Assembly (NCBI GenBank): GCA_027296625.1
Contig: JAPUIX010000028.1
Location: 1-51,915, forward strand
Origin: Gammaproteobacteria bacterium
Lineage (GTDB): Bacteria; Pseudomonadota; Gammaproteobacteria; JAKEHO01
Length of the DNA stretch: 51,915 nucleotides
Direction: 5' to 3'
The translations under genes were made by a program, and so were the position numbers. This document shows positions 11,627 to 16,499 of the stretch, piece after piece; position 1 is the first letter of the stretch, and the number at the start of each line of letters is the position of its first letter. The notes below the pieces were generated by a model. It searched no databases. It was not told the origin of the DNA and saw only the letters and a program-made list of their open reading frames with translations.

Positions 11627-12844
11627 ATGTTTCAAACCGGGGATTTACTCACCAGCATAATGGTACTTATCGGTGCAGTGGTAATCTTTCTGTCCATATT
11701 GAGCACCCGACGCCTATTGCGACGACTGAACGAACGCAGTCACATCCAGCTTTGCCAGTCATTGATCTATTTAATGGTTATTATCTTATTGGCATACACT
11801 GCGATCATTGGGTTAATGGCGATGGGCAATAAACCATTATCCCCAGCGCTAATAGGCTTCGTCTTAGTCCTGGCGGCTTTTTCCATCTACATAGCGGTTC
11901 GTTTAGGACATCTCGCAGCTATAGGTCCAAGCGAAGACCCACCGGATGATCTGATGACAGCCAACGGGCTCGCCCAGCAATTACACGATAAACACGGTAA
12001 ACGGCGTGAAGATGTCACGGTGAGGACGGCTGTCGTTGCTAACGAAAAACTCGAAAAGGAGATCACGGAGCGCAAGCGGATTGAAAGCATGCTATTAATG
12101 AGCAATGAGCAAATGCAGGAAGATTTGAAGCTTGCTGCAGAATTTCAGCATGCCGTCCTACCGAAGTTCCACGATGTCCCTTACCTTAAGATGGCATTGC
12201 GCTACTTGCCTTATGCTAGATGTTCGGGAGATGTTTATGATTTTCTACTCAACCGCGAGGGCGAAATGAGTGTCTTCGTCGGTGATGCGACAGGCCATGG
12301 GGTAGCCGCCGCATTCATGACAATGATGGTCCATTTAGGGTTAGACAGCATCAGGCGTGACTTACCAACCGACGAGGTTATACGCAGGCTAAATGCCCTG
12401 TTAGCATCGCGCGAAACCGGAAAATCAATTACCGGTGTCTATTTCCGCGTCACACCGGCAGGATTGCTCACCGTGACGCACGCCGGTCACCCTTCATTGA
12501 TACTTCTTCCAGTCTCCCGCAAAAAAGGGATCATTTTCCGAGAAGGGGGTTGTCCACTCGGCATGTTCTCAGAGGAGCCCCTGGCTTATACTGAAGAGTC
12601 ATACCAGCTCGCACACGGTGACAAGATCTTCGCTTATACCGATGCCGTGATTGAATGGCAGAACCCTGATCAGGCGCAGTTCGGAATAGATCGTTTGATA
12701 GCATTCCTAGAAGAACACAAGAAGATGGATCTAGATGAGATCCTAGAGAAGCTATTAGCCCATCTAAAGGGCTTTTCACAGGGGCGAGAGTGCGGAGATG
12801 ATCTAACAATGCTGTGTCTTGAGTTTCAGGAATACACACATTAA
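11627..12844 (+). CDS. Membrane-bound SpoIIE/RsbU-type PP2C serine phosphatase
   Basis: The 405-residue protein has three N-terminal hydrophobic segments (about residues 8-26, 44-65 and 72-95), then a charged, probably coiled-coil linker (about 130-180, ending in EKEITERKRIESML). A SpoIIE-type PP2C phosphatase domain follows at about 185-400. Metal-binding motifs are visible as SGDVYDF (about 200), VGDATGHGVAAAF (about 218) and the C-terminal CGDDLTMLCLEF. Such phosphatases usually dephosphorylate STAS anti-anti-sigma proteins in partner-switching pathways. No STAS, anti-sigma kinase or receiver gene is in the window, so its partner must be elsewhere. The start context is unusual (repeats instead of a clear ribosome site). 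Confidence 0.87.
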   Translation: MFQTGDLLTSIMVLIGAVVIFLSILSTRRLLRRLNERSHIQLCQSLIYLMVIILLAYTAIIGLMAMGNKPLSPALIGFVLVLAAFSIYIAVRLGHLAAIGPSEDPPDDLMTANGLAQQLHDKHGKRREDVTVRTAVVANEKLEKEITERKRIESMLLMSNEQMQEDLKLAAEFQHAVLPKFHDVPYLKMALRYLPYARCSGDVYDFLLNREGEMSVFVGDATGHGVAAAFMTMMVHLGLDSIRRDLPTDEVIRRLNALLASRETGKSITGVYFRVTPAGLLTVTHAGHPSLILLPVSRKKGIIFREGGCPLGMFSEEPLAYTEESYQLAHGDKIFAYTDAVIEWQNPDQAQFGIDRLIAFLEEHKKMDLDEILEKLLAHLKGFSQGRECGDDLTMLCLEFQEYTH

Positions 12845-13148
12845 GACGGTCTATGAAACGGAACTCGCCTGATTCGACATTTAATCAGATTCCGCAAATA
12901 CCCGCTTTTTTGTCCCCATAACCCCAAAGGCGTCTTGGCAATTCCGGACCGGCCAACCAAGGCGAAACACCCGTTCATTTCTCGGTCAGGAATTCCACGG
13001 CTTGCCACACAACAGGCTGGTTTACGGGTGATCCAGCAAAACGACATGCCGCTTACAGATCCCTTACAAATGGCTTACAGCAATACAAATAGGCCGAGGA
13101 AGGGCTAGAATTAGCCATAAGGGATATCGGCAGGAGGAACGGGCCCCT
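12845..13148. promoter_or_regulatory. Upstream region of the BTAD regulator with three phased CTTACA repeats
   Basis: No gene is seen. Exact CTTACA hexamers occur at 13052-13057, 13063-13068 and 13074-13079, each start 11 bases after the last, so all lie on one face of the helix. An A/T-rich TACAAAT (13084-13090) follows and could be a -10 element. SARP/BTAD regulators with OmpR-type winged helices are known to bind tandem repeats in 11-bp phase close to a -10 element. The arrangement therefore suggests autoregulation of the BTAD gene downstream, which is inference. Confidence 0.55.
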
Positions 13149-13274: not shown

Positions 13275-16200
13275 ATGAAGCACATAACGGCTTCTCTAGC
13301 TAAGACGACGCGACCGACCCTTGCCAGGGTCTTACCCAGAAAACGGCTTTTTTCCATCCTAGACCGGGGGCGCCAGCGCCCGGTTATCTGGGTGACAGGG
13401 CCGCCCGGCTCAGGCAAGACCACACTGATTGCAAGTTATATCGACAGCAAAAACCTCCGGTGCACGTGGTATCAAATTGATCACGGCGACTCAGATGTAG
13501 CCACATTCTTCTATTACATGGGCCTAGCAACAGCTGACCAGATTGACGCAAAAACGAAACGACTACCCCTTTTCACCCCGGAATACCAGCGGGACTTGAC
13601 AACCTTCACGCGTCGATACTTTCAGACCGTCTACGAGCAGATCGAGTCTCCCTTTGCCCTCGTATTCGATGGCTACCACGATATTCCGTCTCAATCGGCG
13701 CTTCATGACGTAATGCGCGATGCGTTATCAGAGGTGCCTCCCCAAACATGCGTGATCGTCATCAGCCGCAGTGATCCGCCACCGGCGATGGCTCGCCTAA
13801 GAGCCAATAGTGAGATGGAGGTATTAGGATGGCAGGATCTGCGCCTCACGCAAAGCGAGTCAAACGCGATCGTTAAATTAAAGGGCCTTGACCTGTCTGA
13901 ACAGGCGCTCACTGATCTGTATGCCAAGACCCAGGGCTGGGCCGCAGGGCTTGTCCTGATGCTAGAACAAGCAAAAACGGAGGGTGCGATTGCCCAATCC
14001 CTAAATGTATCCACACCGCAACTTGTCTTTGACTACTTAGCAGGCGAGATCTTTCAAAAATCCGACAAGAGAACCCAAGAATTTCTTCTTAAAACGGCCC
14101 TCCTTTCTCAAATGACACCGCGAATGGCCAAAGAACTGACAGCGCAAAACGACGCAGGAACTATCCTGGCTGAGCTAAGCCGCAACAACTACTTCACAAG
14201 CGTCAGACCGAGTGACCCAGAACCCATCTATGAATATCACCCATTATTCAAGGAATTTCTGTTATCACACATTACGGAAGTTTTCAATGAGAACCAACGC
14301 ACCGAGCTACAGCGCGAAGCCGCAGCATTATTGGAGGATGCCGGACGCGTAGAGGATGCGGTCGCCCTTCTGTGCGAGGTTGGTGACTGGCAGCAAATGA
14401 CCCGCATCGTTAACACACATGCCGTTGCAATGTTGGACCATGGAAGAGGAGAAACGCTTGCACAGTGGCTAGAGGACCTTCCAAAGGAAGAGCTGCAAAA
14501 ACACCCTTGGACATTGTATTGGCTGGGCGCTAGTCGTCTTCCATTTGCCCCACGTGAAAGCCGGAACCTTTTTGTACGGGCCTTCGAGTTATTCAGTCAG
14601 CAAGAAGACCCAGACCCTAAGGGACTACTTCTTGCTTGCTCCGGCGCTATGGATGCCATCCTCCATGAATTGGATGACCTCGCACTGCTTGACCGCTGGA
14701 TTACAGAGCTTGATGCACTATTAAAGACCTATCCTGACTTTCCGTCCGAAGGCGTTGAAGCAAGAGTGACCTGCAGCATGTTTTGGTCGCTCATCCTAAG
14801 GCAACCCGATCATCCCGACATCGGATATTGGCTTGATCGAGCGTTTACAGTATCCCGGGCCCAGGGCGACCCGAACCTGCGAATGTCTGTGGAATTATAT
14901 GTTGCGGTGAGCTACATGTGGGTAGGCGCATTTGCGGATGCATCGGAGGTCATTGATTCCATGCGAAAACTGGCTGAATCGCCCGAGGTGTCTCCCCTAT
15001 CGTTAACGACGCTTAAATACGTTGAATCGATGTATTACATGCTAAACGCCGAAGGTGAACGCTGCCTAAAAGCTGTCAAGCATGGATTAGAAATTGCTGA
15101 CGCGACCGGCGTTCATGTGTGGCGATATCAATTTTTGGTCACTGGTGCAGGTGGCGCACTGGGTGCGGGTGATCTTGATACAGCTGAGCAGCTATTGAGC
15201 CAAGTTGAATCCCACCATGAAGGCGCAAGCCGCTTGGACATGTGTCTTTATCACTATTATTCGGCGTGGTACGCGATGCTCCGCCGGGATACGCTAAAAG
15301 CATTTGAACATCAAAAGGTGGCGCTTAAGCTGGCCATCGACCTCGGCTCTCCATACTTCGAGGTGCTCTGTCGCCTGGCATCTGCTCAAGTGCTAGTCGA
15401 GTTTGGAGAGGAACGCAAGGTTATTGCGCACCTTCGGCAAGTACACAGCATTGCGCGCAACATCAAGAGCCATTTATTGGAATTTATGTGTCTATTGAGT
15501 TACGCCCAAATGGCGTTAGAGCACGGGCGACAACGTTCAGGGCTGAATTCATTGCGCTATGCGTTGGAGCTGGGCAGGCAATACGGGTACCGACATTTTC
15601 TTTGGTGGCGGCCATCTGTGATGGCACAACTCTGTGCCTACGCGCTGGATGCCGACATTGAAGTGAGCTACGTTCAAAGCCTTATTCAAAAACGTGGACT
15701 TGTGCCGGAGAACCTGCCTGTCACTGCCGATGGCTGGCCATGGCAATTCAAGATTTTTACGCTTGGACGTTTCCAAGTATTGAAGGATGAACGACCATTG
15801 GGCTTCTTTGCAAAGCTCCAGCGCAAGCCTATCGAGTTGCTCAAGGCCTTGATCGCCTTTGGTGGCCAAGAGGTTCATGAGGATCATCTTTCAGAGGCAT
15901 TATGGCCTCGAATTGATGCAGACTATGCCCATCGCTCATTGACCACCACGCTTCATCGCCTACGCAAGCTATTAGGCGAAGATAAGGCAATCGTGCTGCA
16001 GGATGGACGACTTAGCCTCAATCCATCTTATTTTTGGATCGACACGTGGGCATTTGAGCAAGTGCTAGAGAAAATTGATGACGTCTTTAAGAAACCGCAG
16101 AAAAATATCTCACCCGAGACGATAACAAGTCTCACCGAGAGGGTGTTCACTCTATATAAGGACCCATTTATGGCGAGTGAGAGAGAACAACCCTGGTACG

Positions 16201-16499
16201 TTACCCTACGCGAGCGCTTGCGCAATAAGTTTCTACGCTACATGGGTGAGCTCGCGCGATATTGGGAAGAAAATGGTTATTTGGACAGGGCGGTTGAAGT
16301 GTACCAAAGGAGTCTGGAAGCCGATGATCTGGCTGAAGGATTTTATCAGCGACTTATGCTTTGTTATCGAGAACTTGGGCGCGGGGCCGACGCAGTCGAC
16401 GTCTACAACCGCTGCAGAAAGACATTTTTAGCCGTCTTGAAGATTGAACCATCCCCCAAAACGAAGGCCATTTATGAGAAATTGTTGCATAAAATATAA
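13275..16499 (+). CDS. Large ATPase/TPR/BTAD transcriptional regulator (MalT- and SARP-like)
   Basis: The 1074-residue protein begins with a MalT/STAND-type P-loop ATPase (Walker A GPPGSGKT, residues 42-49; VFDGYHDI as Walker B-like strand). A long helical-repeat region follows (about 330-810). From about residue 822 (FKIFTLGRFQVLKDERPLGF) there is an OmpR-like winged helix with an HRSLTTTLHRLRKLLG recognition segment, then a bacterial transcriptional activator domain (BTAD) to the end. This is a large signal-integrating regulator: ligand or partner sensing by the repeats, nucleotide switching, DNA binding at the C-terminus. A hydrolase gene lies 194 bases downstream and phased repeats lie upstream; both may be targets. 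The inducer is unknown. Confidence 0.88.
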   Translation: MKHITASLAKTTRPTLARVLPRKRLFSILDRGRQRPVIWVTGPPGSGKTTLIASYIDSKNLRCTWYQIDHGDSDVATFFYYMGLATADQIDAKTKRLPLFTPEYQRDLTTFTRRYFQTVYEQIESPFALVFDGYHDIPSQSALHDVMRDALSEVPPQTCVIVISRSDPPPAMARLRANSEMEVLGWQDLRLTQSESNAIVKLKGLDLSEQALTDLYAKTQGWAAGLVLMLEQAKTEGAIAQSLNVSTPQLVFDYLAGEIFQKSDKRTQEFLLKTALLSQMTPRMAKELTAQNDAGTILAELSRNNYFTSVRPSDPEPIYEYHPLFKEFLLSHITEVFNENQRTELQREAAALLEDAGRVEDAVALLCEVGDWQQMTRIVNTHAVAMLDHGRGETLAQWLEDLPKEELQKHPWTLYWLGASRLPFAPRESRNLFVRAFELFSQQEDPDPKGLLLACSGAMDAILHELDDLALLDRWITELDALLKTYPDFPSEGVEARVTCSMFWSLILRQPDHPDIGYWLDRAFTVSRAQGDPNLRMSVELYVAVSYMWVGAFADASEVIDSMRKLAESPEVSPLSLTTLKYVESMYYMLNAEGERCLKAVKHGLEIADATGVHVWRYQFLVTGAGGALGAGDLDTAEQLLSQVESHHEGASRLDMCLYHYYSAWYAMLRRDTLKAFEHQKVALKLAIDLGSPYFEVLCRLASAQVLVEFGEERKVIAHLRQVHSIARNIKSHLLEFMCLLSYAQMALEHGRQRSGLNSLRYALELGRQYGYRHFLWWRPSVMAQLCAYALDADIEVSYVQSLIQKRGLVPENLPVTADGWPWQFKIFTLGRFQVLKDERPLGFFAKLQRKPIELLKALIAFGGQEVHEDHLSEALWPRIDADYAHRSLTTTLHRLRKLLGEDKAIVLQDGRLSLNPSYFWIDTWAFEQVLEKIDDVFKKPQKNISPETITSLTERVFTLYKDPFMASEREQPWYVTLRERLRNKFLRYMGELARYWEENGYLDRAVEVYQRSLEADDLAEGFYQRLMLCYRELGRGADAVDVYNRCRKTFLAVLKIEPSPKTKAIYEKLLHKI

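What the first reader, a model, noticed from the sequence alone, without database searches (positions are those of the whole stretch)
13052..13090. Three CTTACA repeats in exact 11-bp phase before a BTAD regulator
CTTACA occurs at 13052, 13063 and 13074, so all copies face the same side of the helix, just ahead of an A/T-rich -10-like stretch. SARP/BTAD proteins with OmpR-like winged helices are known to bind such phased repeats. The gene 200 bases downstream encodes a large ATPase/BTAD regulator, suggesting an autoregulatory operator in a gammaproteobacterium, where such regulators are little studied.
Basis: partly seen in the sequence, partly recalled or inferred. Interest (0 to 1): 0.6.

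Follow-up and report, generated by a model that had tools for sequence, protein, structure and literature searches.

The report
Operator array of a BTAD-type regulator
Three or four evenly spaced copies of a short DNA word in front of a large, uncharacterised bacterial regulator gene are, on genomic evidence, the landing strip for that regulator; the same strip marks the promoters it most likely controls in this and many other gammaproteobacteria.

Summary
In detail: CTTACA lies at 13052, 13063 and 13074, with a weak fourth unit at 13041. It is far beyond chance and is the most conserved stretch of the intergenic region in the only congener held. It is not unique to this gene. The 11-bp-phased repeat recurs at three other promoters of the same genome. 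In 369 gammaproteobacterial genomes it sits within 500 bp of a homologue of this ATPase/BTAD gene 18 times (expected 0.09). In genomes with the gene, but barely in those without, it is followed at a fixed 10-11 bp by a -10 hexamer: the published geometry of SARP activators such as AfsR. The protein's C-terminal 250 residues are modelled confidently and match AfsR and EmbR. So the repeat is very probably this regulator family's operator, activating most targets by replacing the -35 box.

The A/T stretch at 13082-13090 is not conserved; TAGAAT at 13106-13111 is the better -10. At this gene the array points opposite to activated promoters, so autoregulation is likely but its sign is open. No binding or expression was tested. 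It is a first operator code for a widespread regulator family: useful and testable, not a new principle.

The parts
13041..13051 (+). weak fourth repeat unit (ACGACATGCCG) in 11-bp phase
   Evidence: not conserved in the congener
13052..13062 (+). repeat unit CTTACAGATCC (TGTAAG on the - strand)
   Evidence: conserved in congener
13063..13073 (+). repeat unit CTTACAAATGG
   Evidence: core conserved in congener
13074..13084 (+). repeat unit CTTACAGCAAT
   Evidence: TTACAGC conserved in congener
13053..13113 (+). conserved promoter block: array plus downstream 30 bp, 52 of 61 bases identical in the congener
   Evidence: flanks 33-37%
13106..13111 (+). candidate -10 hexamer TAGAAT for the BTAD gene (inferred)
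   Evidence: invariant in congener; no sigma-70 -35 partner found
13275..16499 (+). regulator gene, 1074 aa: MalT-like NACHT/AAA ATPase, TPR region, winged helix, BTAD
   Evidence: single copy in genome
15813..15986 (+). winged-helix DNA-binding domain (residues 847-904, Pfam Trans_reg_C match just below its cut-off)
   Evidence: structure model, AfsR/EmbR matches
15918..15974 (+). putative recognition helix (residues 882-900, HRSLTTTLHRLRKLLG)
   Evidence: two arginines invariant in 36 homologues
16110..16487 (+). BTAD domain (residues 946-1071)
   Evidence: E 4e-18
11627..12844 (+). SpoIIE-type phosphatase gene upstream of the array; a relative is a predicted target at C160 (link to the system inferred only)

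Best explanation
The phased repeats are the operator of the regulator encoded just downstream. Its C-terminal winged-helix/BTAD module works like a SARP domain: monomers bind side by side, one per 11-bp unit (core CTGTAAG on the - strand). At regulated promoters the array lies in place of the -35 box, with the last TGTAAG 10-11 bp before an often poor -10, so the bound protein would recruit RNA polymerase. The family thereby activates a small regulon and, in many genomes, its own gene or the next gene. At the window's own gene the array is inverted and sits 21 bp upstream of the likely -10, so it most likely gives autoregulation from an upstream or repressing position. Shown: the repeats, their conservation, adjacency to BTAD genes, the fixed -10 distance, and the SARP-like predicted fold. 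Inferred: binding, activation, the sign of autoregulation, and the signal.
For: Array conserved in the congener inside an otherwise unalignable region and at orthologues of 42-51% identity. Same arrays at three further promoters of this genome, all matched in the congener. In 369 genomes, 18 of 48 exact pairs in homologue-bearing genomes lie within 500 bp of the homologue, 0.09 expected; genomes with the gene have pairs more often (23/55 against 28/314, P 1e-8). A -10 follows at 10-11 bp next to BTAD genes (z 7.3) and elsewhere in those genomes (z 6.6), but barely without the gene (z 2.1). Only the N5 spacing is enriched, 48 against a mean of 6 for other spacings. C-terminal module: pLDDT 94, best PDB matches AfsR and EmbR. 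AfsR and PimR are known to act through 11-bp direct repeats.
Against: No binding, footprint or expression data. At the window's own gene the array is inverted and lacks the usual -10 distance. Many homologues of 30-35% identity show no recognisable array next to the gene, so the code changes or is lost with distance. OmpR-type response regulators use the same repeat geometry.
Confidence: 0.82

Rival explanations
1. The array is the site of another OmpR-family regulator, such as PhoB or another response regulator that binds 11-bp direct repeats, and the BTAD gene is merely one of its targets.
For: PhoB binds direct repeats in tandem through the same kind of winged helix (PMC3348028). The promoter geometry alone cannot tell them apart. 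Some sites in genomes without the BTAD gene (for example five in G346) also look like promoters.
Against: PhoB-like regulators occur in most of these genomes (general knowledge), yet the arrays concentrate in genomes with the BTAD gene and beside that gene in at least ten families. No phosphate gene was noticed among the targets inspected.
Confidence: 0.12
2. The array is a divergent or antisense promoter element: bound protein drives a leftward transcript, and its place before the BTAD gene is incidental.
For: The array points leftward when compared with activated promoters, and pyrimidine-rich DNA precedes it on that strand as at some other targets.
Against: No -10 at 10-11 bp on the left in the window or the congener, no leftward gene, and conservation lies on the right side of the array.
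Confidence: 0.05
3. Chance or a slippage-made short tandem repeat without function.
For: Short direct repeats do arise by slippage; many exact pairs in genomes without the gene look random (class C).
Against: Spacers between the copies differ while the hexamers do not. Conservation, adjacency, spacing and -10 statistics all speak against it.
Confidence: 0.01

Closest known systems
AfsR of Streptomyces coelicolor (large SARP) and its afs box
   Same: Winged helix plus BTAD module (profile match E 2e-18, top Foldseek hits), ATPase and TPR parts, 11-bp direct repeats, repeat end about 8 bp from a poor -10.
   Different: SARP module at the C terminus instead of the N terminus; MalT-like ATPase; different repeat word (TGTAAG); up to four units; gammaproteobacterial host.
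PimR-type SARP-LAL regulators and their operators
   Same: Three heptamers in 11-bp phase as main operator; large ATP-binding part.
   Different: Consensus CGGCAAG; SARP part N-terminal; antibiotic cluster targets in Streptomyces.
PhoB and the Pho box
   Same: OmpR-type winged helix on direct repeats, tandem binding.
   Different: Response regulator without BTAD or ATPase; motif distribution here follows the BTAD gene.
EmbR of Mycobacterium tuberculosis
   Same: Same wHTH-BTAD fold.
   Different: FHA domain instead of ATPase/TPR; only fold compared here.
HilA of Salmonella
   Same: OmpR/ToxR-family activator in a gammaproteobacterium (PMC7232297); its hexamer-N5-hexamer box is recalled from memory, not checked here.
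   Different: No N-terminal ATPase; different motif and targets.

Membership tests
SARP / AfsR-type regulator (protein) | OmpR-type winged helix followed by BTAD as one module | tested here: met
   Pfam, profile match to AfsR over the whole domain, predicted structure and Foldseek
SARP / AfsR-type regulator (protein) | SARP module at the N terminus (as in AfsR and PimR) | tested here: not met
   Module is at residues 820-1074, the C terminus; NCBIfam AfsR model far below its cut-off
SARP-type operator (DNA) | Direct repeats at 11- or 22-bp spacing | tested here: met
   only N5 spacing enriched
SARP-type operator (DNA) | 3' repeat about 8 bp from the -10, overlapping the -35 region | tested here: met
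   Met at regulon promoters; not met at the window's own gene, where the array is inverted
SARP-type operator (DNA) | Bound by the SARP domain, with activation | not testable with these tools
   Needs purified protein
PhoB / Pho box | Distribution independent of BTAD genes; phosphate-starvation targets | tested here: not met
   Array enriched in genomes with, and beside, BTAD genes; no phosphate gene noticed among targets inspected
MalT / LAL regulators | MalT-like ATPase with C-terminal LuxR-type HTH | tested here: not met
   ATPase part matches the MalT model but below its cut-off; C terminus is wHTH-BTAD, not LuxR

The most novel reading that the evidence does not exclude
A widespread gammaproteobacterial family of ATPase-TPR-SARP regulators, with the SARP module at the C terminus, shares one operator code (up to four TGTAAG units in 11-bp phase replacing the -35). 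It controls itself and lineage-specific neighbours: a conserved 70-aa small protein, secreted proteins, a SpoIIE phosphatase and, in one genus, a small RNA. At the window's own gene the flipped array makes the same protein a repressor instead of an activator.
Probability: 0.3. Interest if true: 0.7.

Novelty: new variant of a known kind. Interest (0 to 1): 0.55.

Why it matters
Large ATPase/BTAD regulators are common in gammaproteobacteria (55 of 369 sampled genomes have a close homologue), yet my searches of the open literature found no operator or regulon for them. A shared, recognisable operator lets anyone read off candidate targets in hundreds of genomes. It also suggests that the SARP mechanism, studied so far mainly in Streptomyces, operates in Proteobacteria with rearranged domains.

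Tried and rejected
Chance or slippage: rejected. Pho box: same repeat geometry, but distribution and targets argue against it. The A/T stretch 13082-13090 as -10: not conserved. A leftward promoter from the inverted array: no -10 at the proper distance in the window or the congener. Sigma-70 promoter and terminator scan of the intergenic region: nothing. Other classes of the phylum: three genomes with a homologue, only G537 shows arrays upstream. Rfam over the candidate small-RNA loci: no hit. NCBIfam and Pfam for the 70-aa target protein: none; the same for the 108-aa one. Literature searches for proteobacterial BTAD operators: nothing relevant. Locus L002 is stored unoriented, which made the first upstream comparison fail; L031 was used instead.

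Full report
Observation. The window carries CTTACA at 13052, 13063 and 13074. A weak fourth unit in phase precedes them at 13041. The arrangement is not expected by chance in 52 kb. In the whole genome the exact pattern CTTACAN5CTTACA has five hits against none for the reversed control. The gene at 13275-16499 is the genome's only member of its kind. It has an N-terminal NACHT/AAA ATPase most like MalT, a TPR region, a winged helix (847-904) and BTAD (946-1071).

Conservation. The single congener held (G001, whose contig matches JAKEHO010000006.1 in length; locus L031; protein 81% identical) has TTACAGATCCCTTACAGATCAGTTACAG at the same place. 52 of 61 bases from 13053 on match without a gap, while the flanks do not align. 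This block holds TAGAAT (13106-13111), the best -10 candidate. CTTACA-form triple arrays about 200 bp upstream of the start also occur at orthologues of 47% (L032) and 44% (G341) identity. Direct, activator-oriented pairs stand before the gene in L032 and G006 and in G021, G168 and G276.

A regulon, not one site. The same genome has 3-4-unit arrays at C134:23434 (before a 108-aa unknown gene), C134:23944 (before a secreted DUF992 gene) and C160:39209 (before a SpoIIE phosphatase related to the one upstream of the BTAD gene). All three are matched in the congener. Read in the TGTAAG direction, each array ends 11 bp before a hexamer kept in both species: CAGTAT, GATGAT/CATGAT, CAAACT. I noticed this offset in the own genus first.

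Across the class. In 369 gammaproteobacterial genomes, 55 have a homologue at E <= 1e-40 and 51 have an exact pair. Of 48 pairs in homologue-bearing genomes, 18 lie within 500 bp of the homologue, with 0.09 expected. The probability is 4e-37, and still 2e-19 after allowing a tenfold preference for intergenic DNA. The genomes are not all independent (G021/G168/G276 and G043/G183/G290 are congeners), but about ten families are involved. The -10 test gives z = 7.3 for sites next to the gene, 6.6 for other sites in the same genomes and 2.1 for genomes without the gene. Only the 11-bp phase is enriched: 48 pairs at N5 against 1-10 at each other spacing from N2 to N10.

The protein. The C-terminal 252 residues are predicted with pLDDT 94. 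Foldseek puts the AfsR-RNA polymerase complexes and EmbR first, and a profile of 36 homologues matches AfsR over the whole domain at 2e-18. The putative recognition helix reads TTLHRLRK with the two arginines invariant. AfsR contacts its repeats through T88 and R92 of the same module (PMC10936776). The equivalence to T and R here is my reading of the spacing, not a computed superposition.

Mechanism. Published SARPs bind 11-bp direct repeats side by side over the -35, with the 3' repeat 8 bp from the -10. PimR needs three repeats for full function. Counting the unit as ATCTGTAAGnn, the arrays here end 8-9 bp before the -10. The simplest mechanism is therefore the SARP one. The ATPase and TPR parts presumably gate the DNA-binding module in response to an unknown signal, as reported for AfsR; for this protein it is inference. 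A SpoIIE phosphatase beside the gene and another in the regulon hint at control by phosphorylation. That is speculation.

The window's own copy. Here the array is flipped relative to the layout of activated promoters, and no leftward -10 exists at the right distance. It occupies roughly -77 to -34 if transcription starts near 13118, just upstream of the -35 region of the TAGAAT promoter. Autoregulation is therefore likely, but activation from upstream and repression are both open.

Targets elsewhere. A 70-residue protein (consensus start M-x-S/N-YIVRIYRR) without a family in Pfam or NCBIfam follows the BTAD gene in at least seven genomes, with an array or a variant of it (CTCACAGAT, TTACGGAT) before it. 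In the genus of G043, G183 and G290 the array after the BTAD gene faces a stretch of about 150 nt ending in a terminator-like hairpin, without a convincing shared ORF: a candidate small RNA, unknown to Rfam. In G052 two BTAD copies are each followed by an array and a related secreted protein.

Verdict. A real operator array, correctly spotted. Its link to the BTAD gene is strongly supported. The -10 assignment is wrong, the sign of autoregulation is undetermined, and the element belongs to a family-wide regulon. Binding is untested.

Noticed in passing
L246 (G082), L248 (G080), L250 (G148), L249 (G101), L251 (G317), L252 (G099), G088:C153:8995: A conserved small protein of about 70 aa (YIVRIYRR start, no Pfam or NCBIfam family) lies just downstream of the BTAD gene, preceded by an 11-bp-phased array or a variant.
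   Followed up: partly
L084:8378-8560 (G043), L165:3630-3790 (G290), L166 about 4770-4600, - strand (G183): Between the BTAD gene and its converging neighbour, an array promoter faces about 150 nt of conserved DNA ending in a GGGGCC-GGCCCC hairpin and a T run: a candidate small RNA, no Rfam match.
   Followed up: partly
window 11627-12844 and G000:C160 (L050:5594-6532): Two related SpoIIE-type phosphatases: one directly upstream of the BTAD gene, one behind a four-unit array elsewhere, perhaps part of the same control circuit.
   Followed up: partly
G346 contigs C25, C101, C111, C145, C187 (L192-L196): A genome without a close BTAD homologue has five exact pairs, some with a -10 at the usual distance (CATAAT, TATAAG); which regulator would use them is unknown.
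   Followed up: no
G028 and G173 (same family f28): L104-L106, L181: Pairs of the kind TGTAAGcactaTGTAAGcag recur without a -10 at the usual distance; they look like a dispersed repeat of another kind.
   Followed up: no
G537:C332 (L239, L242): A genome of another class of the phylum (8% contamination) has two near-identical BTAD genes in tandem, with CTTACA-type arrays about 250 and 740 bp upstream of one.
   Followed up: no
G043:C45:6453-6514: A tandem array of 14-bp units (CTTACAACTTATGA), out of the 11-bp phase, unrelated in layout.
   Followed up: no
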